The translations under genes and the position numbers were made by a program. Below, in pieces: positions 20,898-34,056 of a stretch of 64,000 bases of DNA. The notes under the pieces were generated by a model. It ran no database searches. It was not told the DNA's origin and was given only the letters and a program-made list of their open reading frames with translations. Source of the stretch: Pseudooceanicola atlanticus (GTDB lineage: Bacteria; Pseudomonadota; Alphaproteobacteria; Rhodobacterales; Rhodobacteraceae); NCBI RefSeq assembly GCF_000768315.1, contig NZ_AQQX01000002.1, positions 1-64,000 of the forward strand, in the 5' to 3' direction. Positions within the stretch are counted from its first letter, which is position 1. The number at the start of each line of letters is the position of its first letter.

Positions 20898-22121
20898 TCA
20901 ACGAACGACCGGAAGGTCCAGTTCGAGGTTGCCGCAATCGAGGAACACCCGGAGCTCGGGATCCCGCGACTGGAGGGCGACGGTGGCGATGCCCGGCGTG
21001 GTGACTTCGCCGCGCTGGTTCTCACCCCAGATCTCGATGTCCACCAGGGCGTGACCGTCCTTGATGTATTTCTTCGACACCTTGCCCTTGCACCAGGTAC
21101 TGTCACCCATGGTGTTGAAGCGGCGCATCTCGGTGCGGACGCGCTTGAGGAATGCCGCATCGCCCATCCAGTTGGTGACGAGCGACGCCATCCACGAAGA
21201 TCGTTGCGGGCCGTAATCGTAGACCCCGGGCACGCCGACCTCCTTGGCCGTGCTTTCGCGGTGGTGACCGATACCGGTGTACTCGATGCCGCCTCCGGCC
21301 TCGGGATTGCGGAAGAAGTGACCAGGGTGCTTCATTGCATTCTGGAAGACCACGCCATGGGTATGACCGCGCCCAGAGCCCACGAGGAAACCCATGGTAT
21401 CCATCAGTGACAGCGGGCCGCGCACGATGGTGTCGAGGCTTTCCCCTTCGGTCACGTCCTCCCAGTACCGCACCTTGGAGCCACGCATCTTCATCGGCTC
21501 CTCCATGATGCATGCGTCGAGCTCTTCGAACTCCTCCTGGGTGTACTCGTAGGTGGTGATATCCTTGTACTTGCCGGCGTCACGCGCGGCCTTGCGCTCG
21601 TGGCGGGTGCAGGTCCCCAAGGCGCGGGACAGCATGTCGCCGTGCTGGTTGAAGTAGGTCGCCTCGACGTACTGCAGCACGAGCCGGCCCGAGAACTTGC
21701 TTTCCTTCACGTCGATCCCGATCACGCGCTCGATTGCGTTGATGCGGTCGCCGGGGCGGATGTGGCGGAAGATTTCCCAGTCGTTGCCCGCGTAAAAGCC
21801 GTGCACGCCCGGCAGGCCCCAACGGGTCCGTCCGATCCAGCCAAGCGCCATCGGGAACATCGGATGGCTCAGCTGAGTACCGTAGCGCGATGCTGCGCCA
21901 TAGCCCGGTTCCCGGTAAAGCGGGTTCAGGTCGCCGATCCCGTTGCACCAGTTGCGCAGCGTGTCCGCAGTCGCATCCTGAAGATACGGGCCTTCAGGGC
22001 GAAGCTGCAGCCCCACCATCTTTTCAGCGGCGGCAATCGCTTCGTCGGTGATTTTGCCTTCGGCCGGCGCGCCGCCCATGCCCTTGGCCTCGTCGTCCTT
22101 GATTTTCTCTGCGGTGGTCAC
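20898..22121 (-). CDS. Double hot-dog (MaoC/FAS1-like) acyl-CoA dehydratase
   Basis: 407 residues. The N-terminal domain (about residues 45–190) contains WCNGIGDLNPLYREPGYG and HPMFPMALGWIGRTRWGLPG, resembling the FAS1-like MaoC dehydratase domain with the N/D-P-L-Y/H motif. A second domain (about 210–400) contains KVRYWEDVTEGESLDTIVRG, the start typical of MaoC-like hydratases. Fused double hot-dog enzymes hydrate or dehydrate bulky or branched enoyl-CoA esters. It is the first gene of the unit running to the lyase and begins about 70 bp from an AATGCATT operator. Substrate is unknown. Confidence 0.78.
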   Translation of the reverse strand: MTTAEKIKDDEAKGMGGAPAEGKITDEAIAAAEKMVGLQLRPEGPYLQDATADTLRNWCNGIGDLNPLYREPGYGAASRYGTQLSHPMFPMALGWIGRTRWGLPGVHGFYAGNDWEIFRHIRPGDRINAIERVIGIDVKESKFSGRLVLQYVEATYFNQHGDMLSRALGTCTRHERKAARDAGKYKDITTYEYTQEEFEELDACIMEEPMKMRGSKVRYWEDVTEGESLDTIVRGPLSLMDTMGFLVGSGRGHTHGVVFQNAMKHPGHFFRNPEAGGGIEYTGIGHHRESTAKEVGVPGVYDYGPQRSSWMASLVTNWMGDAAFLKRVRTEMRRFNTMGDSTWCKGKVSKKYIKDGHALVDIEIWGENQRGEVTTPGIATVALQSRDPELRVFLDCGNLELDLPVVR

Positions 22122-22185
22122 TTTCAGGATCTCCCTATCAGTCTGGTGTCGGTGGCGTCATGCGCATCTTGCGCGATTATTTTTC

Positions 22186-22199
22186 ATATAATGCATTCT
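22186..22199. promoter_or_regulatory. AATGCATT operator upstream of the dehydratase–lyase unit
   Basis: ATATAATGCATTCT (core AATGCATT 22190–22197) lies about 65–78 bp upstream of the 407-residue dehydratase gene. It matches the palindromes at 22295, 30933, 32369 and 32410. GntR/FCD regulators bind such short AT-rich palindromes, and a GntR gene lies 1.4 kb away. Confidence 0.6.
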
Positions 22200-22294
22200 T
22201 TTGACAGCGGTCAAGCGGGCACGTTGCAGGCATTTCGCCCTATTTTTCACTATTCCTGGGGAATTCCCCGCCCGTTTAGGCTCTAGTCCATCAA

Positions 22295-22308
22295 TTTAAT
22301 GCATTAAA
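22295..22308. promoter_or_regulatory. 14-bp perfect palindrome TTTAATGCATTAAA
   Basis: A perfect 14-bp palindrome 13 bp downstream of the isochorismatase-like stop codon (minus strand), followed by an ATTGCATT half-site at 22309–22316. Together with the site at 22186 it frames the promoter region of the minus-strand dehydratase unit. It is most likely bound by the GntR/FCD protein encoded at 22954–23601. Confidence 0.6.
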
Positions 22309-22320
22309 ATTGCATTCCGT

Positions 22321-22899
22321 CTAGAATGTCACGTCGGCTGCGCTGGTCACCTGCGCGAAGCGGCGCAGCCCGGACAGGGCGTGGTCATGCTCGTCGGCGG
22401 TTGCGCCGGCACAGCAGTCTTCAAGCAGCACGCATTCGTAGTCACGGTCGTGGCCTTCACGGACCGCCGCCGACACGACGCCGTTCGTCGATACGCCGGA
22501 CAGGACCAGGCGCCGGATGCCCTGCGCTTTTAGGAGCGGTTCCAGCTTGGTCGCGTAGAACGGGCTGACCCTGTGCTTGATGATATCCGGGTCGCCGGGC
22601 TGCGGGGCAAATCGGTCCAGCACCTGGGTTCCCCAGTCGCCCAGCTTGAACACCCCGTTGTCGCGAGCCTTCGAGAAAACCGGCGATTCCGGCGGGCACT
22701 CGGCGTAGTCCGGGGAAAAACCGACACGTACATAACCGACCATCACGCCCGCAGCACGGGCCTTGGTGATCGCAAGTTCGGTCGCTTCGTAGACGCCGCG
22801 ATCCTGCATGAGCGGGACATAGCTCTTGCCGCCCATCCCGTCGGGATGAACGAGGTCGTTCAGCATGTCCATGACAAGGAGGATAGAGTCAGATGCCAT
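22321..22899 (-). CDS. Isochorismatase-fold hydrolase lacking the usual catalytic Cys
   Basis: 192 residues. The alpha/beta fold of the isochorismatase/cysteine hydrolase superfamily is clear: ILLVMDMLNDLVHPDG supplies the first catalytic Asp, DIIKHRVSPFYAT the catalytic Lys, and VLSGVSTNGVVSAAVREGHD the conserved cis-peptide region. In amidases of this superfamily the nucleophile stands in a TxxCV motif. Here the sequence is TNGVV, with Val at that position. Relatives without the Cys include true isochorismatases such as PhzD, which hydrolyse vinyl ethers. The gene closes the importer/regulator unit. The reaction is therefore open: an ether hydrolase, or an inactive or variant amidase. Confidence 0.82.
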   Translation of the reverse strand: MASDSILLVMDMLNDLVHPDGMGGKSYVPLMQDRGVYEATELAITKARAAGVMVGYVRVGFSPDYAECPPESPVFSKARDNGVFKLGDWGTQVLDRFAPQPGDPDIIKHRVSPFYATKLEPLLKAQGIRRLVLSGVSTNGVVSAAVREGHDRDYECVLLEDCCAGATADEHDHALSGLRRFAQVTSAADVTF

Positions 22900-22953
22900 T
22901 GTGCAATCCTTTCAGGCTAGGGTTCGTCCCCGAGCCGGAAAGGGCGCGGAGGG

Positions 22954-23601
22954 CTATTCGGAGTAGCTGGCCTTGAACTCGTCCCAGGCAGAGCGGATGT
23001 GCGTTTGCAGGGCCTGGAGAAAGGCGGCCTCGTCGCGCGCGATGATGGCGCTCAGCATGTCCCGGTGCTCCTGCGAAGCTCGGTCGATGCGGTTGTCGAG
23101 GCGATTGATGAGGTCGAACGGGTAGCGCGCCCAGAGCGCCCGAACGAAGCGCAGCGTCTGCGGCAGTTCGGCCGCGATGTAGATAAGCTCGTGAAAGCGG
23201 TAATTGATCGTCCGGACCGCATCCTTGTCGCCGCGCGCCGCGGCGTCCTCGATCTGGGCCTGCAGGGAACGCAACTCCTCGATGTCCTGCGACGTCAGGC
23301 GATTGACCGCCTTCAGGCCCAGCTTGCATTCCAGCATGACCCGCAAATCGGTGATCTCTTCGGTCGCGTTGATGTCGAAGGGAGCCACGATCGCCCCGCG
23401 ATGCGATGTGCCCAGGATAAAGCCCTCGGCCTCCAGCAGCTTGATCGCCTCCCGGACGGGGGTGATCGACGTACCGATCATCTCGGCGATCTGTGCCTGC
23501 TTGAGCTTGGAACCGCGCGCGAACTGACCCGAAATGATGCCTTCCCGAAGGAAATCCGCAACGAATTCTTCCTTGGTCTGATGCTTCGCCCGGCCTTCCA
23601 T
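22954..23601 (-). CDS. GntR family regulator, FCD (FadR-like) subfamily
   Basis: 215 residues. The N-terminal winged helix contains KLKQAQIAEMIGTSITPVRE and AIKLLEAEGFI, the GntR signature. The C-terminal part is the all-helical FCD ligand domain; LRVMLECKLGL, INYRFHELIY and EHRDMLSAIIARDEAAF carry the usual Asp/His metal or ligand contacts. The ATG at 23601 is preceded by GGGGG; a TTG two codons upstream is less likely. It sits within the catabolic locus and is the best candidate to bind the AATGCATT palindromes. The inducer is probably the transported acid or its CoA ester. Confidence 0.92.
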   Translation of the reverse strand: MEGRAKHQTKEEFVADFLREGIISGQFARGSKLKQAQIAEMIGTSITPVREAIKLLEAEGFILGTSHRGAIVAPFDINATEEITDLRVMLECKLGLKAVNRLTSQDIEELRSLQAQIEDAAARGDKDAVRTINYRFHELIYIAAELPQTLRFVRALWARYPFDLINRLDNRIDRASQEHRDMLSAIIARDEAAFLQALQTHIRSAWDEFKASYSE

Positions 23602-23638
23602 TACCAACTACCCCCAACAAGGTGACGCGTGAGTGCAC

Positions 23639-23646
23639 AATGCATA
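23639..23646. promoter_or_regulatory. Weak AATGCATA site upstream of the GntR gene
   Basis: AATGCATA lies 38–45 bp upstream of the GntR start codon, one base off the AATGCATT core and without AT-rich flanks on one side. It could allow autoregulation, but may be chance. Confidence 0.25.
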
Positions 23647-23649
23647 CCT

Positions 23650-24450
23650 TCATGCCCCGGCCTCCGGAGCCTGGTCAAGTCGGAGAATTCTGCCCTCCAG
23701 GTCGGGGCTGACAGCAGGGTAGAGGTCCAGAAGCCTTGGATCATGGGCTGGAAGGACGTGATCGTCGCTGTCGGCCAGGTCGCGGATGCGGTCGTGGGCC
23801 GCAATCATGTCAGAGATATTGAAGGCGACGGCGAAGGGGATGCCGCGTTCGTATTCTTCGTAATAATGCAATGCATCGGAGGCGAGCACGACCCAGCCCC
23901 TGTCGGTCCGGATGCGCAGCACCTCCTGCCCGGCGCAGTGTCCGCCAACCCAATGGGCGCTGATCCCGTCGGCCACATCATGGTCCCGTCCGTGCAGATG
24001 CAGGCGCCCCTCGTAGAGCAGATGTACCAGCCGGGCGATTTCATCCGGCCAATAGGCATGGCGGAAAGTCTGCTTCTCCATCCAGGGGCCCGTAACATAG
24101 GACATCTCTTCCGCCTGCATGTAGAAGCGCGCGTTCGGCAGAGCATCGAGATAGCCGAGGTGATCGTAATGCGCATGGGTCAGCAGAACGGTTGAGACCT
24201 GTGCGGGGTCGATGCCAAGCGCCGCCCAGCCGTCGGGCGGAGACATGACTTGCTCATGCCCGTTCCTGGCGCCCTTCTCGGGATCGATCCCGGTATCGAC
24301 GATGATCACATCCTGACCGCTCCTGAGCACCCAGCAAAAGAAATCAAGCGTCAGGGGAGCCGTAGGGTCCGGGTCCGAAATGAAGTTGACCCCACGGGTA
24401 CGAGTTTCGTTGGTCGCGTGCCGGATGGCGTAGATTTCCCAGGTTTTCAT
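23650..24450 (-). CDS. MBL-fold metallo-hydrolase (lactonase-like)
   Basis: 266 residues. LLTHAHYDHLGYLDALPNAR supplies the HxHxDH zinc motif (about residues 91–96), GGHCAGQEVL the next histidine, and LASDALHYYEEYERGIPF the bridging Asp. This pattern and the N terminus (DFFCWVLRSG… VDTGID) resemble N-acyl homoserine lactonase-type enzymes. In this neighbourhood it more likely opens a lactone or hydrolyses an ester or thioester of the transported compound. It starts 9 bp after the LivF-type ATPase gene and is co-transcribed with the importer genes. True substrate is unknown. Confidence 0.82.
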   Translation of the reverse strand: MKTWEIYAIRHATNETRTRGVNFISDPDPTAPLTLDFFCWVLRSGQDVIIVDTGIDPEKGARNGHEQVMSPPDGWAALGIDPAQVSTVLLTHAHYDHLGYLDALPNARFYMQAEEMSYVTGPWMEKQTFRHAYWPDEIARLVHLLYEGRLHLHGRDHDVADGISAHWVGGHCAGQEVLRIRTDRGWVVLASDALHYYEEYERGIPFAVAFNISDMIAAHDRIRDLADSDDHVLPAHDPRLLDLYPAVSPDLEGRILRLDQAPEAGA

Positions 24451-24459
24451 GGCATCCCT

Positions 24460-25191
24460 TCAAGCGGCGGCTGCGCCAAGATAGGCATTGATCGCCTCCT
24501 GGCGGGCAGTTTCATCCTTGAGTTCTTCGGCCCCGCGGTGCCCGACGATCCGTCCGCCACGCAGGAAGTGCAGATCATCGCACAGGCGCATTGTCACGGC
24601 CAGATTCTGTTCGACCAGCACGATGGCCAGGTCGCTTTCTTCGCGGATGGTGGCCAGACGGTCGAAGACCCGGCGCACAAGCAAAGGCGCAAGCCCGAGC
24701 GATGGCTCGTCGAGCAGCAGGAGCTTGGGATTAGCAACCAACCCGCGCCCGATGGCCAACATCTGCTGCTCACCACCCGATAGGCGCCAGGCCTGGCGGT
24801 CGACTTTCTCCGCAATTTCAGGAAACAGATCGAGAACCATCTCCATCCTTTCCTTTCGCTCTGCAGCCGGCTTCTGGTAGCCGCCCAGCACGAGGTTCTC
24901 GCGCACGGTCAGATCACCGACGATCTCACGCCCCTCGGGCACGTAGACGATGCCCTTGGCGACCCGCCTGCGGGCGGGTGACGATAGTAGCTCCTCTCCC
25001 ATGAACCGGATCTTGCCGGTCGCTGGCGTCAGGCCCGAGACCGCCTTCATGATCGAAGATTTCCCCGCCCCGTTGGCGCCCAGCAGCGCGACCACCGCCC
25101 CGTGGCCGACGGTAAAGGAGACAGAGCTCACCGCCGGAGCTCCCGCGCCGTAGGCGACCGAAAGGTTTTCGACGCTCAGCAGGTCATTCAT
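24460..25191 (-). CDS. ABC transporter ATPase, LivF type
   Basis: A 243-residue ATP-binding subunit. Walker A GANGAGKSS, signature LSGGEQQMLAIGRGLV and Walker B LLLLDEPSLGLAP are all intact. The order LivH–LivM–LivG–LivF matches branched-chain amino acid (HAAT) importers, whose relatives also carry organic acids and aromatic compounds. The ATG at 25191 is preferred over ATG 25197 and GTG 25200 because its distance from GGGGA is best. It overlaps the LivG-type gene by 8 bp. It energises uptake of the compound bound by the substrate-binding protein at 29559–30767. Confidence 0.93.
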   Translation of the reverse strand: MNDLLSVENLSVAYGAGAPAVSSVSFTVGHGAVVALLGANGAGKSSIMKAVSGLTPATGKIRFMGEELLSSPARRRVAKGIVYVPEGREIVGDLTVRENLVLGGYQKPAAERKERMEMVLDLFPEIAEKVDRQAWRLSGGEQQMLAIGRGLVANPKLLLLDEPSLGLAPLLVRRVFDRLATIREESDLAIVLVEQNLAVTMRLCDDLHFLRGGRIVGHRGAEELKDETARQEAINAYLGAAAA

Positions 25192-25963
25192 CGTCATCAC
25201 TCCCCAGATAGATCTGGATCACGTCCGGGTTGCTGCGAACCTCTTCGGGCGACCCAACGGCGACGAACTCGCCAAAATTAAGCACGTAGATCCGGTCGCA
25301 GATCGACATCACGAGATCCATGTCATGTTCGACCACGACCAGGACGAGGTCCGTCGACGCAAGCTTGCGCAGCACGGTCGTCAGGTCGCGGGTTTCAGAG
25401 TTGTTGAGGCCGGCCGCCGGTTCATCCAGCATCAACACGGACGGCTTGCCGACCACGGCACGGGCAATTTCGACCAGGCGCTGCATGCCGGGTGGAAGCT
25501 CTGCGGGAAACTTGTCCCCGACATCTGGCAGTCCGAGATCGACAAGCGCCTTGTCGGCCGAGCGGGCCATTTCCTCGCGTTCGCGGGCGCCGGCCGGAAG
25601 GGGCAGGAAAGCCGACAGCCAGCCTGCCTTGCCGTAGCGTGCGATGCCCATCATCACGTTCTCGCGCACCGTCAGGTCCGGACAAAGCGCCACGTGCTGG
25701 AAACTCCGAACGATGCCCTTGTTGGCGCGCGCGGCTGGTGGCAGGCCGTTCAGCCGGTCACCAGCATAGGAAATCGTGCCTTGTTGCGGCGAATAGGCCC
25801 CGGTCAGGCAATTGAACAGGCTGGTCTTCCCGGCGCCGTTCGGTCCGATCAGGCCGGTGATTTCACCCGCGCGGAATTCTACATCGAGCCCCTTGAGGAC
25901 CTTGATCCCGCCGAACGAGAGCGCGATCCCTTCGCCGCGCAGGGCGTTTGTCGTCTGGTCCAT
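25184..25963 (-). CDS. ABC transporter ATPase, LivG type
   Basis: 259 residues with Walker A GPNGAGKTS and Walker B VLMLDEPAAGLNN. The signature segment reads LPPGMQRLVEIARAV, where LivG proteins usually have LPYGQQR; the Gly and the R-x-V-E-I-A-R part are kept, so activity is probable. The start at 25963 was chosen for its GGAGG 7 bp upstream and the TGATG overlap with the LivM-type stop codon. It pairs with the LivF-type subunit as the ATPase dimer of the importer. Confidence 0.92.
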   Translation of the reverse strand: MDQTTNALRGEGIALSFGGIKVLKGLDVEFRAGEITGLIGPNGAGKTSLFNCLTGAYSPQQGTISYAGDRLNGLPPAARANKGIVRSFQHVALCPDLTVRENVMMGIARYGKAGWLSAFLPLPAGAREREEMARSADKALVDLGLPDVGDKFPAELPPGMQRLVEIARAVVGKPSVLMLDEPAAGLNNSETRDLTTVLRKLASTDLVLVVVEHDMDLVMSICDRIYVLNFGEFVAVGSPEEVRSNPDVIQIYLGSDDDE

Positions 25964-26949
25964 CACGCGACCTCCGATTTTTGGGCCATGGCTTTGCGGA
26001 TGCGTGGCATGTAGTGACCGAGCAAGATCATCCCGAGCAGGGCCAGACCATAGAAGACGGGGATCCAAGCGCCGGATGCCGACAGAAGCTGCGGTACCAG
26101 TGTGACGAAGGCGCCACCGATCAGCACGCGAGGCAGGGAAAGGCCGTAAAAGCTGACCACCGAGCCAACGAGCAGGAAAATCGCCTGCCAGAAAGTGAAG
26201 CCGCCAGGAGAAACGGTGGAGCCGGAGAAGGCCAGCGTCGCCCCGCAGAGCGCACCGATCCCGCCCGAGATCCCCATGATGGAAATCCGCGCCCAGACCC
26301 TCCGCGTGCCGAAGGCGTCAGCCGCCGACGGATGCGTTTTGGCCAGCAACAGCGCCATGCCCTGACGCGACAACCGCAACCGCGCTACCGCAACACAGAC
26401 GATCACCAGCATGACCAGCGCAACATAGTAGCGCTGCATTCCCATGCTCACGCCCGGAATGAACGGCGTCGATACGTAAAGACCCTCGTAGCCGCCGGTC
26501 AGTGCATCGAAGTTGTTGATCATTTCCGGCACGGCGAGGGCGAGCGCCAGGGTGGTCACAGCCAGGTAGATGCCGTGCAGGTTGCGCGAAGGCCATGCGA
26601 AAAGCAGGCCGAAGGTCACGCCAAGCAGCAGCGCCAGCGGGACCGACGCCCAGAGCGAGATACCGTACCGGACGTCCAGCACTCCAACGGAATAGGCGCC
26701 GAGCGCGGTAAAGAAGGTGTGGCCGATCGAAACCTCGCCACCGTAGCGAACCAACAACGAGACAGCGAGAACGCCGATCGAGTTGGCAAAGCAAAGGCCA
26801 AGCGTGAAGGTCCATGACCCACCCAGCAGGAATGGCATGAAGATCAGCGCCGCCACCAGGACAGTTGTTGTCACGCCGGAGGTCGCCACGCCGGACAGGC
26901 GTGACAGGACGGTTTGGTCCGGCGTCATATGCGTCGCTTGATCAGACAC
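25963..26949 (-). CDS. ABC transporter permease, LivM type
   Basis: 328 residues, highly hydrophobic with about nine TM segments. GHTFFTALGAYSVGVL and the LivM-type EAA-like region near VWARISIMGISGGIGALCGA identify it. A GTG at 26949 with GGAGG 7 bp upstream is the probable start; the longer reading from 26979 has no such site. It overlaps the end of the LivH-type gene by 8 bp, which indicates translational coupling. It forms the transmembrane channel with the LivH-type permease. Confidence 0.9.
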   Translation of the reverse strand: MSDQATHMTPDQTVLSRLSGVATSGVTTTVLVAALIFMPFLLGGSWTFTLGLCFANSIGVLAVSLLVRYGGEVSIGHTFFTALGAYSVGVLDVRYGISLWASVPLALLLGVTFGLLFAWPSRNLHGIYLAVTTLALALAVPEMINNFDALTGGYEGLYVSTPFIPGVSMGMQRYYVALVMLVIVCVAVARLRLSRQGMALLLAKTHPSAADAFGTRRVWARISIMGISGGIGALCGATLAFSGSTVSPGGFTFWQAIFLLVGSVVSFYGLSLPRVLIGGAFVTLVPQLLSASGAWIPVFYGLALLGMILLGHYMPRIRKAMAQKSEVA

Positions 26950-27841
26950 GGGAACCTCCGACCTTTTGCAGGATACCATTGGGGAAGATGTTCAGCGCCG
27001 CCAGGATCACCGCGAGCAGGAATGTCGAGGAGAACTCGGGCGAGACATAGAAGGTGAACAGGTTCATCAGCACGCCAACCAGGACACCGCCGACCAGAGC
27101 GCCGGGCAGCGAGGCGAAGCCGCCGATCACCGCCGCGGCGAAGGCCTGTAGCATGAATGTCGCCACGGTCGTCACCGACAGGAATGTGGTCGGCACGATC
27201 AGCAGGGCCCCGACCACGCCGAGGATGGCCGCCGTGATCCATGCAAAGTAATGCACGGAGCGAAGGTTCAGGCCGCAGACCTCGGCGGCAAAAGGGTTTT
27301 CAGAGATTGCGCGGAAAGCGATCCCCAGCTTGGTGTAGTCGATGATGATGAACAACGCGCCGATGGTCACCACCGCTACGGCCAGCACGGTCAGGTCATA
27401 GCCAGTGATCAACAATCCGAGGACCGAGAATGCAAAGCGCGGGATCGGCAGGTCGAGCGCGACGATATCTGCCCCGAAGATCAGCAGCGTGACGCCCTGC
27501 GCGATCAACCCGAAGCCAAGCGTTGCGATGGTCGATGTCAGATCGCTTTCGAACACCACCGGGGAAATAATGGAGTAGATCAGGAACGCGATGGCAACGG
27601 CAGCCAGCAAGGCGACCAGGACGGCCGCGCCCCAGGACAGTGACATCAGCACGCCCGACGACAGCCCATAGACGAGGAAGGCTGTCAGGCCGGCGACGTT
27701 GCCGTGGCTGAAATTGACGACCTTCGAGCACTTGAAGATCATGACCAGTCCGAGCGCGCCGAGCGCATAGAGGCAGCCAGTGATCATGCCTGACCAGATC
27801 AGAGGAAAAAGGTCGTAAAGCAGCGAATCCCAGAAACTCAT
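26942..27841 (-). CDS. ABC transporter permease, LivH type
   Basis: 299 residues with about eight hydrophobic segments. GMITGCLYALGALGLVMIFK and VNFSHGNVAGLTAFLVYGLS near the N terminus and the region AFRAISENPFAAEVCGLN form the typical LivH pattern. The start ATG overlaps the dehydrogenase stop codon by one base (TGATG). It is the second membrane subunit of the importer and follows the two dehydrogenase genes in the same unit. Confidence 0.92.
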   Translation of the reverse strand: MSFWDSLLYDLFPLIWSGMITGCLYALGALGLVMIFKCSKVVNFSHGNVAGLTAFLVYGLSSGVLMSLSWGAAVLVALLAAVAIAFLIYSIISPVVFESDLTSTIATLGFGLIAQGVTLLIFGADIVALDLPIPRFAFSVLGLLITGYDLTVLAVAVVTIGALFIIIDYTKLGIAFRAISENPFAAEVCGLNLRSVHYFAWITAAILGVVGALLIVPTTFLSVTTVATFMLQAFAAAVIGGFASLPGALVGGVLVGVLMNLFTFYVSPEFSSTFLLAVILAALNIFPNGILQKVGGSRV

Positions 27842-28725
27842 CAGATTTTCTCCATCGCGTCTGACTCGACCAGTTGAATGACCGAGGGAAAGTATTTGTC
27901 TCCGAACCCGTTCTCGACCGCAGCCGCGTAATAGGCGCGCGCCTGGTTGGCCGTAGGCAGCGGAGTGTGGGTCTGGTCCGCCAGGTCAAAGACGTAGGAA
28001 ATATCCTTGAGCACGTATTCGGCCGGGAACGACTGTGCGGGAAACTCTCGTGGGGCCATGGCTTTCATGCCGTGGTTGCGCAGGACGAAGCTGTCACCCG
28101 ATCCTTTCGACACCGCTTCGAGCAGCGTCTCGGCCTTCACCCCGGCCCGCTCGCCCAGCACGATCATCTCGGCCAGCGCCACCGTATTGGCGAAAACCAG
28201 CATGTTGTTGACCAGCTTGAGCACCTGCCCCGCCCCGACATCGCCGCCGAGGGTGACGTCGGAGGCCATGTAGTCGAGCACGGGCTTGATGCGCTCATAC
28301 AGCGCGGGCGGCGCGCCGACCATGATGCTCAGCTTGCCCTGCTGCGCGGCTTCGCGCGTGCGGGCGACAGGGCAGTCGGCAAAGCTGATCTCGTGCGCTG
28401 CGAGCAATGCCCCGGCCTCGCGGGCGTCGGCCACAGTCGTGGTGGACAAGTCGATAACCACGGTCCCCGCCCGGGCGGAGCCCGCGATGCTCTCGGCGAC
28501 TTTCAGGACCTGCGGGCCGCCCGGCAGGGACAGGCAGACAATGTCGGCCTCTTTCGCCAGCGCCTCGACGCTGTCCATCTGCTCGACCTTCGTGTCCGCC
28601 AGCGCGGACCGCGCCGCGTCGGACAGGTCGAAGCAGAGGACGCGACCGGCATGCTTGGTCGCAATGTTGCGGCACATCGGGCCGCCCATGACGCCCAGTC
28701 CGATAAATCCGATTGTGTCGGTCAT
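27841..28725 (-). CDS. 3-hydroxyisobutyrate dehydrogenase-family NAD(P) oxidoreductase
   Basis: 294 residues. GFIGLGVMGGPMCRNI is the beta-hydroxyacid dehydrogenase Rossmann signature, DCPVARTREAAQQGKLSIMV corresponds to the substrate-binding DxPVSGG-like loop (here ARTREAA instead of SGG), and GQVLKLVNNML carries the catalytic Lys. Family members oxidise 3-hydroxyisobutyrate, tartronate semialdehyde or similar 3-hydroxy acids. The altered loop suggests a different substrate. It is encoded between an SDR and the importer permeases, so it may handle the entry or exit of a hydroxy acid. Confidence 0.85.
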   Translation of the reverse strand: MTDTIGFIGLGVMGGPMCRNIATKHAGRVLCFDLSDAARSALADTKVEQMDSVEALAKEADIVCLSLPGGPQVLKVAESIAGSARAGTVVIDLSTTTVADAREAGALLAAHEISFADCPVARTREAAQQGKLSIMVGAPPALYERIKPVLDYMASDVTLGGDVGAGQVLKLVNNMLVFANTVALAEMIVLGERAGVKAETLLEAVSKGSGDSFVLRNHGMKAMAPREFPAQSFPAEYVLKDISYVFDLADQTHTPLPTANQARAYYAAAVENGFGDKYFPSVIQLVESDAMEKI

Positions 28726-28735
28726 TGTCGTCCCC

Positions 28736-29485
28736 TCAATCCATCAACATGCCGCCGTTCACGTCGAGAACGGTTCCGGTGATCCAGTTCGAGGCAGGAG
28801 ACGCGAGGAACAGGATCGCCTGGGCGATATCCTCGGGCTGGCCGAAGCGGCCAAGCGGGACGCTGCCGTGCGGTGATGGCGCTGCCCGTTGCGTCACGGT
28901 TTCCCACATGGGGGTCTCCACGGGCCCGGGTGCGATGACACTGGCATAGATGCCCTTGTCGGCCCCGTTCTTGGCGACCCATTTCATCAGCCCATGCACT
29001 GCGGACTTGGCCGCGACGTAGGACGGGCCCGAGGCCACGCCGCCGATCTTGGACGCGATCGACCCCAGGGCGACGATCTTGCCCATGCCCTGCTCTGCCA
29101 TGATCGGGAAGATTTCCCGCACCGGGTTGACGACTCCCATGAGGTTCACGTTCAGGATCGACATCCATTCGTCATCCGTCGAGTCGACCAGGTGCTTGTG
29201 AGAGATCGTCCCGGCACAAAGGATCAGCGCGTCAATCGCCCCATGCTCGGCTTTCGTTTCGGCGATGATCGCCCGCGTTTCGTCGCGCGAGGTCACGTCG
29301 TAGCGGCGATAGACGACCTTGTCGGACTCGAACTCGGCCTGGTCCGCGATGTCGGTGGCGATGACCGTCGCACCGGCTTCGGCAAGGGCGAGTGTCGTTG
29401 CATGGCCGATGCCTCCTGCTGCGCCGGTGACGAGCGCAACCTTGCCATCAAGACGTGCGGGCGCGCTGACTGGGATGGTGGACAT
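28736..29485 (-). CDS. Short-chain dehydrogenase/reductase
   Basis: 249 residues of the classical SDR type: cofactor loop VTGAAGGIGHATT, LCAGTISH (NNAG-like, here CAG), catalytic Ser in VALGSIASKIGG and the YVAAK pair (YxxxK). The GQPEDIAQAILFLAS and ITGTVLDVNGGMLMD end is characteristic. The start at 29485 has GGGGAT upstream. It is the second gene after the substrate-binding protein and probably oxidises a secondary hydroxyl of the catabolic intermediate with NAD(P)+. Confidence 0.9.
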   Translation of the reverse strand: MSTIPVSAPARLDGKVALVTGAAGGIGHATTLALAEAGATVIATDIADQAEFESDKVVYRRYDVTSRDETRAIIAETKAEHGAIDALILCAGTISHKHLVDSTDDEWMSILNVNLMGVVNPVREIFPIMAEQGMGKIVALGSIASKIGGVASGPSYVAAKSAVHGLMKWVAKNGADKGIYASVIAPGPVETPMWETVTQRAAPSPHGSVPLGRFGQPEDIAQAILFLASPASNWITGTVLDVNGGMLMD

Positions 29486-29507
29486 AGAGATCCCCGATTG
29501 TTGAATT

Positions 29508-29549
29508 TGAAAAAGTGTCGCCCGCCGACGGGAAGGCCCGCGGGCGACA
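29508..29549 (-). terminator. Hairpin with U-run after the substrate-binding protein gene (attenuator)
   Basis: On the minus strand the gene at 29559 is followed by a perfect 10-bp stem (arms TGTCGCCCGC at 29516–29525 and GCGGGCGACA at 29540–29549) and then CTTTTT. This is a good intrinsic terminator. Within an operon, such a hairpin after the binding-protein gene commonly lets that first gene be expressed more than the rest. Confidence 0.65.
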
Positions 29550-29558
29550 GGACCGTCG

Positions 29559-30767
29559 TTACTCGCCCTTGGCGGCGTTGAATGCGACGTCGGGATAGGG
29601 CTGGAAGTCCCGGACGAGAACAAAGTCGCCATCCGTGTACTGTATGATGCCTTCCTGGCGGGTCCCGCGATGATCGTCGGCACTGAAGGTCACGCCGCGC
29701 GCACCTCCGACGGCCGCGTCGGTCATGGTGTTCATCGCCTTGACGAGGTTATCTCGCGTGATCTCGTCGCCGCTGTCGAGAAGCAGCTGGAACCCCTTGT
29801 GGAACAGGGCGGCGTTGCTCCAACCGTTCAGCCCCAGAACACCCACCGGGTCATTCGGAAAATACGTTGCAACAGCATCGCGGTAGGCTTTCACCTCCGG
29901 CTCGTCACTGGAAACCGGCAGCAGCCAGGACGAGAAATAGACACCTTCGAGCAGGTCTCCGGCCAGTTTCAGAGTCGACGGATCGGCCGTGAAGAAGGGC
30001 GCGAACCAGGCCACATCGACCCCTTGGAGATCAGCCGCCTTGAGCGCTGCCGCAAGGTTGGCGTTCGACCCGTAGAGCAACACCGTTTGCGCACCGGAGT
30101 TCTGGATGCGCCGGATATGTGCGCTGAAGCTGGTCGTCTTGACGTCGAAGGGGATGGATTCCGCGGGTGTAAGGCCGAGGTCTTCCATCACAAGATCGAA
30201 ACCGCGCTTGGCGGATTTGCCCAGCTCGTCGTTTTCCCACAGCAGCGCGATCTTCTCATGGCCCAGGCCATTGGCAGCGTATTCAGCCGCAGACGCGGCG
30301 GACCACCCGTAATCGGGCAGGAGCGGGAAGACGGCCGGGACTTCGAAGAACTGGCTGGACCCGCCAACCGGACCAATGACGGGAACGCCGGCTTCCTTCG
30401 CATAGGGCAAGACCGCCACGTTGGTCGCGGTTCCGATCGGTGCGGACAGGGCGAAGACTCCATCATCCTCGACCAGGCTACGGGATACGGCGACGCTGCG
30501 CGCAGGATCATATCCATCATCCTTGGTCACATAGTTGAAAGTCCATCCATCTGCGTCGCCGGATTCGTTGAGCATCTTGAAATAGGCTTCGGCCGCATGG
30601 GTCAGAACCGCGTAGAACGGGACTGGCCCCGTCACCGGGGTAAAGGCCCCGATCGTGACCACTTTGTTGTCCAGGTCCACGCCGGTTTCGGCCAAAGTCG
30701 GACCGGCGGAAAGCGACGCTGTCGCGGCGACGGCAAAGGCCGCGCTTCTCCAAAAACTCTTGAGCAT
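29559..30767 (-). CDS. ABC importer substrate-binding protein, LivK type
   Basis: 402 residues with a Sec signal peptide (MLKSFWRSAAFAVAATASLS, cleavage near LAETG). The mature protein has the periplasmic-binding type I fold of branched-chain amino acid-like receptors: VTIGAFTPVTGPVPFYAVL near the N terminus, and ALSAPIGTATNVAVLPYA forms one ligand-binding loop. The start was set at 30767, with GGGAGGAG 6 bp upstream. It is the first gene of the importer unit, divergent from a CaiB-type gene, with two overlapping palindromes between them. Ligand is unknown. Confidence 0.92.
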   Translation of the reverse strand: MLKSFWRSAAFAVAATASLSAGPTLAETGVDLDNKVVTIGAFTPVTGPVPFYAVLTHAAEAYFKMLNESGDADGWTFNYVTKDDGYDPARSVAVSRSLVEDDGVFALSAPIGTATNVAVLPYAKEAGVPVIGPVGGSSQFFEVPAVFPLLPDYGWSAASAAEYAANGLGHEKIALLWENDELGKSAKRGFDLVMEDLGLTPAESIPFDVKTTSFSAHIRRIQNSGAQTVLLYGSNANLAAALKAADLQGVDVAWFAPFFTADPSTLKLAGDLLEGVYFSSWLLPVSSDEPEVKAYRDAVATYFPNDPVGVLGLNGWSNAALFHKGFQLLLDSGDEITRDNLVKAMNTMTDAAVGGARGVTFSADDHRGTRQEGIIQYTDGDFVLVRDFQPYPDVAFNAAKGE

Positions 30768-30932
30768 TTTGTCTCCTCCCTGAGACGTTGGTGCTGAATT
30801 TATCTTTCTACTGCGGCCGGGACGTCTCCCGATCGAAGCAACCCCAAGCACGGAACACGCAAAGTTTTGCTGCCGACAAGGCGTCCCTCCGGAGCCCCGC
30901 CCGTTCCGAGCCAAGAATGCACTTGACGCTCA

Positions 30933-30950
30933 CATAATGCATTATGCATT
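30933..30950. promoter_or_regulatory. Overlapping AATGCATT operators in a divergent promoter
   Basis: CATAATGCATTATG (30933–30946) is a perfect 14-bp palindrome and TATGCATT (30943–30950) adds a second half-overlapping copy. On the minus strand a TTGTCA (30963–30958) stands 18 bp from CATTAT (30939–30934), a plausible sigma70 promoter for the binding-protein gene, with the operator over its −10. A plus-strand TTGACG lies at 30923–30928. Repression by the GntR/FCD protein of both divergent genes is the likely role. Confidence 0.6.
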
Positions 30951-31024
30951 CTATCGATGACAAGAGAAAATTGAAATTTCCCGATTTGGCGCTGCAAAGC
31001 GCCATCTGACAAGGAGAAGAATGC

Positions 31025-32254
31025 ATGAAAACTGGTGTTCTCGCCGGCAAAACCGTGGTCGAACTGGGCAGCATGATCGCCGCGCCCTATGGCGCACATC
31101 TACTGAATCAGCTTGGCGCAGACGTAATCAAGATCGAGCCTCCCGCAGGTGAAACCACCCGCAAGCTGGTCCGCGGAGGCCCGAGCGGAAGCTACCTGGC
31201 GTTCAACAGGGGAAAACGGAGCCTCTGCCTCGACATGACTTCGGAAGACGGAAAGGAAGCCTTTCGGAGCCTGATCGCCAGCGCCGACATAGTTCTGCAG
31301 AACCTGTCGCCATCGGCCGCGCGCAAACTGGGCGCGACTTTCGAAGACTGCAACGCGATCAATCCCGACATCATCTTTTGCCATATCAAGGGATACGGCG
31401 CAGGACCGCTTGAAGAACAGGTCGCGTCCAACCCCATCGCCGAAGCGGCGACGGGTGTCATGTACTACAACCGCCCCGATGGCCGACCGGCCCGCCTCGG
31501 GCCATCGTATCATGACCAATTCGCAGGCTGTTACGCGGTGATTGCGATTCTCGCCGCGCTGCATTCGGACCGCTCCGAAGAGCGCCGCAATATCGAGATC
31601 GGCCTCTATGAAACCGGCCTGCACATCGCAGCGCGGGACCTGCTGGGCGTGCAATTGAAGTCGCAACTCCTGGGCCGACCCGAGCAGGAACCTTCGGCCG
31701 AATTCTCGATCCCCGGCTACGGCGCCTACGAAACGCAGGACGGGCGCTGGATCTACCTGGTCATGTTGACCGATGATCACTGGCGCAAGTTCTGCACAGC
31801 CGTCGGCCTTGCACACGACCCCGAACTTGCGACCTTGCGCCGACGGAGGGCCCGGCGCCCCGATGTCGAGCAGATCGTGAGCGGGGCCGTGGCGGCCTTC
31901 GGGTTCGACGCCCTGGTCGCCAAACTCGACGCCGCCGGCGTCGGCCATACCGAAGTGCTGCCCCTGGACCGCGTGCTCGACACGCCGCAGGCGCAGGCCG
32001 GGCAAAAGGTGTCCGACTTCGGGTTCGCGGGGTACGACTTCCAGACGCCAGAATTGCCCTTAGGTCCGTTGCTCGGTGACGTTGCGGGCTCCCTGCCCCC
32101 GCCGCTTCTGGGCGAGCACTCGACCCAGATCATGCAGGAACTCGGCTTCTCCGACGCGCGAATCGCGGATATTCTCGGCCATGGGTCGGCAGTCCAGGCT
32201 GACCCCGAGGCCACGCTCTGGGCCAAGCCGCGCCAGGCCGAAACCACCGGCTGA
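31025..32254 (+). CDS. CaiB/BaiF family CoA transferase (third copy)
   Basis: 409 residues: KTVVELGSMIAAPYGAHLLN and LGADVIKIEPPAGE are the N-terminal class III CoA transferase signatures. In the region that normally holds the catalytic Asp, RRNIEIGLYETGL reads Glu (NIEI) where the two other copies have VDV/VDA. Whether Glu can replace Asp as the acyl carrier is unknown. AAGGAGAAG precedes the start, which itself overlaps an AATGCAT sequence. It is divergent from the importer unit, followed by its own terminator, and so is a monocistronic gene of the same regulon. Confidence 0.86.
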   Translation: MKTGVLAGKTVVELGSMIAAPYGAHLLNQLGADVIKIEPPAGETTRKLVRGGPSGSYLAFNRGKRSLCLDMTSEDGKEAFRSLIASADIVLQNLSPSAARKLGATFEDCNAINPDIIFCHIKGYGAGPLEEQVASNPIAEAATGVMYYNRPDGRPARLGPSYHDQFAGCYAVIAILAALHSDRSEERRNIEIGLYETGLHIAARDLLGVQLKSQLLGRPEQEPSAEFSIPGYGAYETQDGRWIYLVMLTDDHWRKFCTAVGLAHDPELATLRRRRARRPDVEQIVSGAVAAFGFDALVAKLDAAGVGHTEVLPLDRVLDTPQAQAGQKVSDFGFAGYDFQTPELPLGPLLGDVAGSLPPPLLGEHSTQIMQELGFSDARIADILGHGSAVQADPEATLWAKPRQAETTG

Positions 32255-32297
32255 CACGGCGTTCGTCGTCACGAAACCATCCGGAAATCTTCGCAAA

Positions 32298-32329
32298 GGC
32301 GGACCCACCAGCCGTGGGTCCGCCCTTTT
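32298..32329 (+). terminator. Intrinsic terminator after the third CaiB gene
   Basis: A perfect 11-bp stem (GGCGGACCCAC at 32298–32308 with GTGGGTCCGCC at 32314–32324), 5-base loop, then CTTTT. It ends the transcript of the CoA transferase and separates it from the operators of the next gene. Confidence 0.85.
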
Positions 32330-32368
32330 CCGATCTTCGGCCCAGACCGCCTCCGGCCGACCGCTTTC

Positions 32369-32380
32369 AAAATGCATTAT
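32369..32380. promoter_or_regulatory. AATGCATT operator (first of two) before the CoA hydrolase/transferase gene
   Basis: AAAATGCATTAT, core AATGCATT at 32371–32378, lies about 140 bp upstream of the start at 32515. It pairs with the palindrome at 32410. The 40-bp centre-to-centre distance (about four helix turns) would allow cooperative binding on one DNA face. Confidence 0.6.
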
Positions 32381-32409
32381 TTAGCCACACAAACAGCCAC
32401 TCCAGCTGA

Positions 32410-32423
32410 TATAATGCATTATA
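32410..32423. promoter_or_regulatory. 14-bp perfect palindrome TATAATGCATTATA (second operator)
   Basis: A perfect 14-bp palindrome about 90 bp upstream of the CoA hydrolase/transferase gene, matching the site at 30933 in its central 12 bases. A half-site TAATGCAC follows near 32464. The site contains TATAAT-like sequences, so it may overlap a promoter. Confidence 0.6.
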
Positions 32424-32514
32424 AGGGCAAAAATAACTATCGAATCGCCAATAGGCCCATAAATAATGCACCAAATCTCATTCCCTCGCTCACAGTCTCA
32501 AGTGGAGTTTACCG

Positions 32515-34056
32515 ATGACCAAAATCCGATCCGACGCGCCGTGTGCTCGCATCCGTGACCGTTCGCTCTTAGCTCGCATCGTTTCGGCCGATGCGGCAGC
32601 GAACCTTATCCGTGACGGAATGGTCGTCGGCATGTCCGGCTTCACCAGGTCCGGCGAGGCCAAGGCGGTGCCTCTTGCCCTGGCGCGCCGGGCCACGACC
32701 GATCCGCTCGGGATCACCTTGATCACGGGCGCGTCGCTTGGCAACGACCTTGACGGGCTGCTGGCAGATAGCGGCGTGATCCGCCGCAGGCTGCCTTTCC
32801 AGTCCGACGCTCGGCTGCGCGCCAGGATCAACGACGGGTCGGTCATGTACCTTGATCAGCACCTGTCCGAGACGGTCGAACAGCTGCGCTCGGGGCAGAT
32901 TCCGAAGCCAGACATCGCGATCATCGAAGCCGTTGCGATCACCGAAGACGGCGGGATCGTACCCACGACATCCGTCGGCAATTCGGCAGGCTTTGCAACC
33001 CAGGCCCGGCAGGTGATCGTCGAGCTCAATACATGCGCGCCCGCAGGTCTCGAAGGGATGCATGATATCTTCATTCCGGCCGACCGCCCTGCGCGCGAAC
33101 CGTTGTTGCTGCGCAATCCTGACGACCGCATCGGTACACCCGTGATCCGGGTCGCCCGCGACCGGATCTCAGCCATCGTCCTTTCCGACCGCCAGGACAG
33201 CTATGCAAACCTCGGGGACCCGGACGACGACACGCGTGCCATTTCGCATCACATCACTGCCTTCCTAGAGCGCGAGGTCAGACGCGGCGCATTGCCGCCG
33301 TCGCTACCGCCGCTACAGGCGGGGATCGGCAGCATCGCCAATTCCGTGCTCTCCGGGTTGACCGATGCGCCCTTTAGCAACATGACCATGTATTCCGAAG
33401 TGCTGCAGGACTCGGCCTTCGACCTGATGGATTCCGGAAAGCTCGGCTTCGCATCAGCCTCCTCGATCACGCTGAGCGCCCCCCGGCATGCCGACGTCAT
33501 GGGGCGGCTCGATCACTACAAGGACCGTCTTGTCCTCCGTCCGCAGGAAATCTCGAACCACCCCGAGATTGTGCGCCGCCTCGGCATCCTCGCAATCAAC
33601 ACTGCGCTGGAGTTCGACATCTACGGCAACGTGAATTCGACCCATGTGATGGGCAGCCACATGATGAACGGTATCGGCGGGTCAGGCGATTTCGCCCGCA
33701 ATGCCGGACTGTCCATCTTCGTCACGAAATCCCAGGCCAAGGGCGGTCAGGTGACCTCAGTTGTTCCCATGGTCAGCCATGTCGATCACACCGAGCATGA
33801 CGTGGACGTACTGGTCACCGAACAGGGTCTGGCTGACCTTCGCGGCCTGGCGCCGCGCGAACGGGCGCGCCTCATCATCGACACCTGTGCGCATCCGGAC
33901 TGGCGCGACACGCTGAGCGATTATTTCGAACGCGCCTGCCAGCGGGGCGGCCAAACACCACACGTCCTGGAAGAGGCCTTTGACTGCCATTCCACCTTCA
34001 GGACGACCGGCTCCATGGTACGCAGTCCGGCTCGCGCCCGGCCTGCGATGACCTGA
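32515..34056 (+). CDS. Acetyl-CoA hydrolase/transferase family protein (type I CoA transferase)
   Basis: 513 residues of the Cat1/Ach1/SucC-like group. The N-terminal GMVVGMSGFTRSGEAKAVPL matches the typical start, QAGIGSIANSVLSGL the CoA-binding loop, and MYSEVLQDSAFDLMDSG contains the catalytic Glu. HVDHTEHDVDVLVTEQGLAD and RARLIIDTCAHPDWR form the conserved C terminus. Such enzymes transfer CoA from succinyl-CoA or acetyl-CoA to a carboxylic acid. It is preceded by two palindromic operators, so it belongs to the GntR regulon and is a second, chemically distinct way of making CoA thioesters in the pathway. Confidence 0.9.
   Translation: MTKIRSDAPCARIRDRSLLARIVSADAAANLIRDGMVVGMSGFTRSGEAKAVPLALARRATTDPLGITLITGASLGNDLDGLLADSGVIRRRLPFQSDARLRARINDGSVMYLDQHLSETVEQLRSGQIPKPDIAIIEAVAITEDGGIVPTTSVGNSAGFATQARQVIVELNTCAPAGLEGMHDIFIPADRPAREPLLLRNPDDRIGTPVIRVARDRISAIVLSDRQDSYANLGDPDDDTRAISHHITAFLEREVRRGALPPSLPPLQAGIGSIANSVLSGLTDAPFSNMTMYSEVLQDSAFDLMDSGKLGFASASSITLSAPRHADVMGRLDHYKDRLVLRPQEISNHPEIVRRLGILAINTALEFDIYGNVNSTHVMGSHMMNGIGGSGDFARNAGLSIFVTKSQAKGGQVTSVVPMVSHVDHTEHDVDVLVTEQGLADLRGLAPRERARLIIDTCAHPDWRDTLSDYFERACQRGGQTPHVLEEAFDCHSTFRTTGSMVRSPARARPAMT

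What the first reader, a model, noticed from the sequence alone, without database searches (positions are those of the whole stretch)
22186..32423. A regulon of AATGCATT palindromes around one catabolic locus
The core AATGCATT with AT-rich symmetrical flanks occurs at 22186, 22295, 30933, 32369 and 32410, and in weaker forms at 22309, 23639 and 30943. All strong copies are in non-coding DNA and stand before the three transcription units of the locus. Three of them are perfect 14-bp palindromes (TTTAATGCATTAAA, CATAATGCATTATG, TATAATGCATTATA), which is remarkable in a GC-rich genome. A GntR/FCD regulator is encoded in the middle. The sites are seen; that this regulator binds them is inference.
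Basis: partly seen in the sequence, partly recalled or inferred. Interest (0 to 1): 0.8.

Follow-up and report, generated by a model that had tools for sequence, protein, structure and literature searches.

The report
Local regulon of one GntR repressor
A handful of matching palindromes in front of one catabolic gene cluster are very probably the landing sites of the repressor protein encoded inside that cluster, because the same sites sit in the same promoters beside relatives of that protein in many other bacteria; the DNA word they spell is unusual for this repressor family.

Summary
Confirmed. AATGCATT occurs 7 times in the window (0.72 expected), five of them in non-coding DNA before the catabolic promoters. 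TAATGCATTA occurs three times in the 4.94-Mb genome, always here. In 25 loci with a close GntR orthologue (74–94%), the Isochorismatase–MaoC gap (25/25) and the CaiB–binding-protein gap (21/21) carry 74 exact sites, under 1 expected from shuffles; two control gaps have none in 25 and 23. Of 55 loci with 51–57% orthologues, 45 keep an exact core just upstream of MaoC, CaiB or the binding protein. In one genome the cluster is split 72 kb apart and both halves keep sites. A TTGAC box lies 16–18 bp before the operator core in 23 of 25 MaoC promoters, so repression by blocking RNA polymerase is likely. The operator lacks the GT…AC signature of FadR-type regulators; matching that, the protein has Ile in 80 of 80 orthologues where FadR and Atu1419 use Arg45 to read that G. 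Paired sites favour whole helical turns (moderate evidence), which hints at joint binding or looping. Binding, inducer and pathway substrate remain untested. New variant of a known kind.

The parts
22954..23607 (-). GntR/FCD (VanR-type) regulator gene; an ATG start at 23601 is as likely
   Evidence: Pfam FCD 75.8 bits, GntR 47.9 bits; AlphaFold2 model pLDDT 89.3 with six main C-terminal helices; best PDB fold match E. coli McbR, TM 0.84
22190..22197 (.). operator core AATGCATT, promoter-proximal site of the MaoC unit (centre about 72 bp from the start)
   Evidence: corresponding sites in orthologues
22210..22214 (-). TTGAC, candidate -35 box, starting 17 bp before the operator core
   Evidence: offset -16 to -18 in 23 of 25 close loci; the generic promoter scan found nothing above its threshold here
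22295..22308 (.). operator TTTAATGCATTAAA, distal site of the MaoC unit, 108 bp from the proximal one
22309..22316 (.). weak operator-like ATTGCATT next to the distal site
23639..23646 (.). weak operator (AATGCATA) upstream of gntR, possible autoregulation
   Evidence: 16 of 25 close loci have a site with at most 1 mismatch within 90 bp of gntR, shuffles mean 0.32
30923..30927 (+). TTGAC, candidate -35 box of the divergent CaiB gene, starting 13 bp before the operator core
   Evidence: same offset in 7 of the 21 close loci with this gap
30933..30946 (.). operator CATAATGCATTATG between the divergent binding-protein and CaiB genes
   Evidence: 21 of 21 orthologous gaps have an exact core
30943..30950 (.). 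overlapping second operator copy TATGCATT
   Evidence: matrix score 16.3
32371..32378 (.). operator core, upstream site of ScpC
32410..32423 (.). operator TATAATGCATTATA, downstream site of ScpC, 42 bp from its partner
16878..17681 (-). CitE/RipC-like lyase
   Evidence: HpcH_HpaI 90.6 bits; RipC_Ccl 154.5 bits, below its cut-off of 375
17678..18529 (-). second MaoC-like hydratase (MaoC2)
   Evidence: FAS1_DH_region 25.8 bits, cut-off 22
18540..19664 (-). CaiB-type CoA-transferase A (start not settled)
   Evidence: best phmmer match in the PDB is a benzylsuccinate CoA-transferase subunit
19730..20873 (-). CaiB-type CoA-transferase B (start not settled)
   Evidence: CoA_transf_3
20898..22121 (-). 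MaoC-like hydratase, first gene of the left unit
   Evidence: FAS1_DH_region
22321..22899 (-). isochorismatase-type hydrolase
23650..24450 (-). metallo-beta-lactamase-fold hydrolase (lactonase-like)
24460..27841 (-). branched-chain-type ABC transporter genes (livF, livG, livM, livH; names for G, M, H by reading of the ORFs, not by a family search)
   Evidence: livF
27841..28725 (-). 3-hydroxyisobutyrate-dehydrogenase-like enzyme
28736..29482 (-). short-chain dehydrogenase (start not settled)
29559..30764 (-). periplasmic binding protein of the transporter (start not settled)
   Evidence: Peripla_BP_6
31025..32254 (+). divergent CaiB-type CoA-transferase C
32515..34056 (+). ScpC-type succinyl-CoA:acetate CoA-transferase
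   Evidence: NF053853 827 bits, above cut-off 500

Best explanation
The palindromes are operators of the GntR/FCD protein encoded at 22954-23607. As a dimer it binds the consensus A-N-A-T-AATGCATT-A-T-N-T between or across the -35 and -10 boxes of the MaoC unit, at the divergent binding-protein and CaiB genes and at ScpC, and more weakly at its own promoter, and so represses a local catabolic regulon until a pathway compound binds its metal-type FCD pocket and releases it. Shown: the sites, their conservation, the promoter geometry at MaoC, the co-occurrence with the regulator. Inferred: binding, repression, inducer. Less certain: paired sites on one face of the helix let two dimers (or a tetramer) act together, possibly by looping.
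For: TAATGCATTA: 3 in the genome, all at this locus. Close orthologue loci: Isoch-MaoC gap 25/25 with 47 sites (shuffle mean 0.49), CaiB_C-binding-protein gap 21/21 with 27 (0.37), ScpC upstream 4/4 with 7 (0.13); control gaps 0/25 and 0/23; 1 site in 346,764 bp of genes against 84 in 30,905 bp outside them. Distant loci: 45 of 55 have an exact core within 300 bp upstream of MaoC, CaiB_C or the binding protein. 25 genomes: 52 10-mers in 19 of them, 44 in the cluster, 8 elsewhere; reversed control 11. The split cluster of G129 keeps the site in both halves; the relocated ScpC of L026 keeps two. Family genomes without the regulator: 38 10-mers in 15 of 116 genomes. With MaoC as bait, the 4 loci with an adjacent GntR orthologue have the sites and 0 of 18 paralogue loci do. 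TTGAC at -16 to -18 in 23 of 25. Ile at the Arg45 column and Gln at the Glu34 column in 80/80, metal ligands N135, H139, H181, H203 in 80/80. VanR-type fold.
Against: No binding, expression or inducer data. Two relocated CaiB_C genes (L027, L029) have no site; 6 of 47 distant MaoC and 4 of 36 distant CaiB_C upstream regions have none at matrix score 10; 10 of 55 distant loci lack an exact core at the three genes. Autoregulation is weak: exact cores in only 3 of 25 close MBL-gntR gaps, matrix sites before gntR in 14 of 25 close and 5 of 55 distant loci. The generic sigma-70 scan found no promoter above threshold in two of three regions. In G231 the MaoC orthologue has no site in 400 bp although the genome has the regulator, with sites beside gntR. 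The 80 loci were found with the GntR protein as bait; the MaoC-bait test is free of that choice but small, and its three non-window positives are the same genomes as L008, L020 and L032.
Confidence: 0.87

Rival explanations
1. The sites are operators of a different, unlinked regulator, and the GntR gene is only a neighbour.
For: The operator lacks the GT...AC signature reported for FadR-subfamily sites. In an Azospirillum genome an off-locus TAATGCATTA stands beside a different GntR gene with Ser, not Arg, at the recognition position.
Against: The 10-mer is at background in 116 family genomes without the regulator; no AATGCATT within 1.5 kb of the 18 other FCD genes of this genome; the SIT recognition helix is invariant in 80 loci while gene order changes.
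Confidence: 0.08
2. The sites are activator sites: the GntR protein activates the catabolic promoters, for instance when it has bound its ligand.
For: Some FCD proteins activate: CitO, by its abstract in a search listing (PMC4746285). Many distal sites lie 80 bp or more upstream of the proximal ones.
Against: The proximal operator of the MaoC unit sits where RNA polymerase must bind, its core 16-18 bp after the start of a conserved TTGAC.
Confidence: 0.1
3. The palindromes are just AT-rich promoter cores (TATAAT-like) conserved for RNA polymerase.
For: TATAAT is contained in TATAATGCATTATA.
Against: Around the invariant AATGCATT the flanks are conserved symmetrically, many gaps have two sites, and the genome has no other TAATGCATTA.
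Confidence: 0.02

Closest known systems
Atu1419 of Agrobacterium fabrum (VanR-type FCD repressor; PMC7797058, passages and sections 21 and 23 seen)
   Same: FCD regulator of a catabolic region; short palindromic operators in several promoters of one locus; metal site with three His; operators 190 bp apart and, with a degenerate copy, 109 bp apart; here 108 and 42 bp.
   Different: Atu1419 reads ATGTATACAT through Arg45 on G3, and changing G3 to A (and C8 to T) abolishes its binding. Here position 3 is A and the residue is Ile. Whether this protein is a tetramer is unknown.
E. coli McbR/YncC
   Same: Best PDB fold match (TM 0.84); same SITPVREA recognition helix; its K-12 binding is described as seeming to include an ATATAT motif, also without that G (passage in PMC13343897).
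   Different: [quoted passage not shown] here the sites are few and local. Identity 24%.
AlkR of Pseudomonas aeruginosa (PMC12042122, passages seen)
   Same: VanR-type repressor of a catabolic gene; palindrome over the -10 regions.
   Different: Operator ATTGTCAGACAAT has GT...AC; Arg45 and Arg49 are reported to contact the major groove.
PhnR_burk (NCBIfam TIGR03338)
   Same: Best NCBIfam match of the regulator.
   Different: 96.3 bits against a cut-off of 271.5, so not a member.

Membership tests
GntR family, FCD subfamily | N-terminal GntR winged helix and C-terminal FCD domain above curated cut-offs | tested here: met
   PF00392 47.9 (cut-off 27), PF07729 75.8 (cut-off 24.3)
VanR group of FCD regulators | FCD domain without the extra helix after the linker | tested here: met
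   Predicted model: six main helices from residue 79 plus one of 4 residues; the top PDB hits include the VanR members McbR, Atu1419, AlkR and 3ihu; definition from PMC7797058 section 23
Metal-binding FCD regulators | three His and one Asn/Asp ligand | tested here: met
   N135, H139, H181, H203 invariant in 80/80; their equivalence to the known ligands is by motif position, recalled, and the metal itself is not testable here
Canonical GntR/FCD specificity | Arg45 reading the G of a GT...AC operator | tested here: not met
   Ile in 80/80; AATGCATT has no GT...AC
Autoregulated local repressor | operators in the promoters of the neighbouring genes and in its own | tested here: inconclusive
   Neighbouring promoters met; own promoter only near-consensus in 16 of 25 close loci and rare in distant ones, 5 of 55
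Tetrameric looping repressor (Atu1419-like) | tetramer bridging two operators | tested here: inconclusive
   Spacings favour a period of about 10.6 bp; oligomeric state not testable here
Binding of the operator by this protein | gel shift or footprint | not testable with these tools
   needs bench work

The most novel reading that the evidence does not exclude
An Ile45/Gln34 class of VanR-type GntR regulators has traded the family's GT...AC operator for a TGCA-centred one (ATAATGCATTAT) and controls a patchily spread catabolic cluster in Alpha- and Betaproteobacteria through paired operators set on one face of the DNA, that is by joint binding or looping of two dimers.
Probability: 0.45. Interest if true: 0.58.

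Novelty: new variant of a known kind. Interest (0 to 1): 0.5.

Why it matters
It gives a regulator, its probable operator and its target promoters for a catabolic cluster for which I found no paper, in a form that can be tested at once. The pairing of Ile at position 45 with an operator lacking the usual G makes part of the specificity code of the FCD subfamily testable: it predicts which regulators will not obey the GT…AC rule. The natural split and rearranged clusters act as ready-made genetic tests.

Tried and rejected
Literature. AATGCATT with GntR: one paper, whose passages show the word only in a primer table (PMC11784139). Longer forms of the palindrome: 101 papers, 30 listed, nothing on a bacterial operator of this kind in the titles shown; with GntR or operator, 19 papers, 18 listed, likewise. 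The gene set: no paper. McbR motif: passages of PMC6134199 gave none. So I found no printed report of this operator in these searches of the held library; most subscription papers are not held. Searches were seen as listings, apart from the papers named.

Pathway identity. NCBIfam and PDB comparisons name only broad families. The RipC-like lyase and the benzylsuccinate-transferase-like CaiB suggest a substituted dicarboxylic acid, but I do not commit to a substrate.

Is the motif general for FCD genes? Rejected: 0 AATGCATT within 1.5 kb of the 18 other FCD genes (60,594 bp). Does the mcbR region of E. coli K-12 carry it? 3 one-mismatch matches where 8.9 are expected. Promoter scan: nothing above threshold at 22060–22340 and 32250–32530, one minus-strand hit at 30963–30934. 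The 43% homologue of G101 (SVT helix) has no 10-mer in its genome.

Helical phasing was tested in four ways of different strength: 42 distinct spacings of matrix sites, 4 of 5000 jittered sets reach the value; 19 spacing clusters, Rayleigh p 0.012 at 10.5–10.6 bp; 29 distinct spacings of exact sites, 23 of 5000; the same allowing any period from 6 to 16, 99 of 2000. Spacings in related loci are not independent. I call it moderate.

Bias notes. The matrix was trained on the same orthologue loci that it then scores (the window was not in the training set); the exact-word counts do not depend on it. TTGAC also occurs 7 times in the control windows, some of which overlap the neighbouring promoter element. 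The reversed 10-mer occurs 71 times in the 120 family genomes, 24 of them in one genome (my sum). The reading of genes near off-locus sites is rough.
Full report
What is there. Five exact copies of AATGCATT stand in non-coding DNA at 22190, 22298, 30936, 32371 and 32413. Three extend to perfect 14-bp palindromes as reported. Seven in the window compares with 0.72 expected from shuffles, none of 100 reaching 7. In the whole genome (4,938,305 bp, 47 contigs) AATGCATT occurs 22 times and its reversed control 3 times; TAATGCATTA occurs 3 times, all here, control 0. Scored with a matrix made from orthologous loci, the five sites reach 23.0–28.6 and the best of the other 17 exact cores of the genome reaches 18.8.

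The cluster. On the minus strand: binding protein, short-chain dehydrogenase, 3-hydroxyisobutyrate-dehydrogenase-like enzyme, livH, livM, livG, livF, lactonase-like hydrolase, gntR, isochorismatase-type hydrolase; then, after the operators at 22298 and 22190, a MaoC-like hydratase, two CaiB CoA-transferases, a second MaoC-like hydratase and a CitE/RipC-like lyase. On the plus strand: a third CaiB CoA-transferase and a ScpC-type CoA-transferase. By gene order the sites serve four promoters plus, weakly, gntR.

Conservation. One scan of the bacterial genome collection found 111 stretches encoding a relative of the regulator and returned the best 80: 25 at 74–94% identity (L008–L032) and 55 at 51–57% (L033–L087), with record titles from Paracoccus, Salipiger and Roseovarius to Rhizobium, Azospirillum, Novosphingobium, Cupriavidus and Variovorax. 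All 25 close loci carry AATGCATT, as do 49 of the 55 distant ones at any position; 45 of the 55 have it within 300 bp upstream of MaoC, CaiB_C or the binding protein. In the close set the Isoch–MaoC gap has it in 25 of 25 (47 sites), the CaiB_C–binding-protein gap in 21 of 21 (27 sites), two further binding-protein upstream regions in 2 of 2 (3 sites), the ScpC upstream region in 4 of 4 (7 sites) and the MBL–gntR gap in 3 of 25 (3 sites); dinucleotide shuffles give means of 0.49, 0.37, 0.04, 0.13 and 0.10. Two control gaps of the same cluster, GntR–Isoch and SBP–SDR, have 0 in 25 and 0 in 23. Within the cluster spans 84 sites lie in 30,905 bp outside genes and 1 in 346,764 bp of genes. With the matrix (score 10 or more; 14 of 748,730 gene positions reach it), 25/25 close and 41/47 distant MaoC upstream regions, 21/23 and 32/36 CaiB_C regions, 23/23 and 7/7 binding-protein regions, 4/4 ScpC regions, and 14/25 and 5/55 gntR regions have a site. 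The misses include two CaiB_C genes that have moved (L027, L029). Since the matrix was trained on these loci, these numbers describe rather than test; the exact-word counts test.

Natural rearrangements. In Primorskyibacter flagellatus the binding-protein/CaiB_C half lies about 72 kb from the GntR half, and TAATGCATTA is in the same gap there (L112). In Sulfitobacter DFL-14 ScpC stands at the other end of the cluster and still has two sites (L026). Across the 25 genomes there are 52 10-mers in 19 genomes (6 have none; reversed control 11): 43 in the held loci, 1 in that split half, 8 elsewhere. The 8 elsewhere (0.32 per genome) are like the background of family genomes that lack the regulator: 38 hits in 15 of 116 genomes, 0.33 per genome. 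In that 120-genome set the two other genomes with an orthologue of 79–90% have 3 and 1 10-mers, all in the cluster; the genome with a 43% homologue has none.

A test with another bait. MaoC as query in 385 genomes of the class and 390 of the order gave matches in 16 and 6 genomes, 24 distinct loci with the window's own two. The 4 with an adjacent GntR orthologue (the window and three others) have two operators upstream of MaoC each; 18 loci with MaoC paralogues of 33–36% identity have none; two MaoC orthologues without a GntR in the held flank (77% and 58%) have none in 400 bp. The three others proved to be the same genomes as L008, L020 and L032, so they are an unbiased draw but not new loci. 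Followed up, one of the two exceptions (G231) does have an orthologue of the regulator (54%) on another contig, with operators beside it; the other (G197) has only a 35% relative with a different recognition helix (SAT) and no operator in the stretches around MaoC and that gene. G231 is thus a partial exception: there MaoC itself has no operator in 400 bp.

How it probably works. In 23 of 25 close loci a TTGAC box begins 16–18 bp before the operator core nearest MaoC, and the same holds in the window (22210–22214, offset 17). A -35/-10 spacer of the usual length would contain the core, and the -10 box would overlap its right half. For the divergent CaiB gene TTGAC stands 13 bp before the core in 7 of 21 loci and in the window. 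Such a position fits repression by blocking RNA polymerase. The generic promoter scan does not call these promoters and calls only one in the divergent gap, in the binding-protein direction, with its second hexamer inside the operator; so the -10 boxes are weak or non-standard. Sites within one mismatch of the core lie in the 90 bp before gntR in 16 of 25 loci (mononucleotide shuffle mean 0.32), which fits weak autoregulation in the close group.

Recognition. The usual FadR-subfamily operator is an AT-rich palindrome with TKGT/ACMA boxes, with NanR and BioR as known exceptions (PMC4494728 section 10). In Atu1419 Arg45 reads G3 of ATGTATACAT; changing G3 to A abolishes binding (PMC7797058 section 21), and the Arg45–guanine contact is called typical of the family (section 23). 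Here the equivalent 10-mer is TAATGCATTA: A at position 3, G at the centre. Aligned with E. coli FadR, the protein has Ile at position 45 and Gln at 34, in 80 of 80 orthologues; Ser44, Thr46 and Arg49 are kept. Of the 18 other FCD proteins of this genome 13 have Arg45 and none has Ile. E. coli McbR, the best PDB fold match, has the same SIT helix, and its binding is described as seeming to include ATATAT (one passage of PMC13343897). That Ile45 goes with the changed operator is inference from these two cases.

Paired sites. Spacings between neighbouring sites favour a period of 10.6–10.7 bp when periods from 6 to 16 are scanned (68 pairs, 42 distinct). The strength depends on how redundancy is treated (4 of 5000; p 0.012; 23 of 5000; 99 of 2000). 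In the window the spacings are 108 and 42 bp. A weaker overlapping copy at 30943 resembles the extra half-boxes noted near GntR sites (PMC4494728 section 17). Joint binding or looping, as seen for Atu1419 by electron microscopy (passage), is a reasonable but unproven reading.

Fold. An AlphaFold2 model (31 sequences, pLDDT 89.3) has the winged helix and six main FCD helices; the likely metal ligands N135, H139, H181 and H203 are invariant in 80 of 80.

Verdict. It is an ordinary kind of system, a local repressor with its operators, with two less ordinary features: an operator outside the family signature matched by a changed recognition residue, and a site spacing that hints at cooperation. 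The chemistry of the pathway and the inducer are open.

Noticed in passing
window 31020-31027: A near-operator (AATGCATG, matrix score 13.9) overlaps the start codon of the divergent CaiB gene.
   Followed up: no
window 32461-32476: A third weak operator-like stretch (score 15.2) lies between the ScpC sites and the ScpC start.
   Followed up: no
L112, L017 (G129:C4): The cluster of Primorskyibacter flagellatus is split into two halves about 72 kb apart and both keep operators.
   Followed up: yes
L107:3869: In the genome of L027 (Azospirillum) an off-locus GCACTAATGCATTAGTGC stands beside a different GntR gene (29%) whose helix has Ser at position 45.
   Followed up: partly
L113:3699: In Sulfitobacter DFL-14 an off-locus TAATGCATTA precedes what looks by eye like a tricarboxylate-type binding-protein gene, a possible extra regulon member.
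   Followed up: no
G710, G802: Two genomes of the same genus have no match to the MaoC protein at E 1e-60, and a Cupriavidus copy lies on a plasmid (L079), so the cluster looks accessory and possibly mobile.
   Followed up: no
window 20898-22121: The MaoC-like hydratase is among the best conserved proteins of the cluster (80-98% in the 25 close loci), yet phmmer finds no relative with a solved structure at E 0.001.
   Followed up: no
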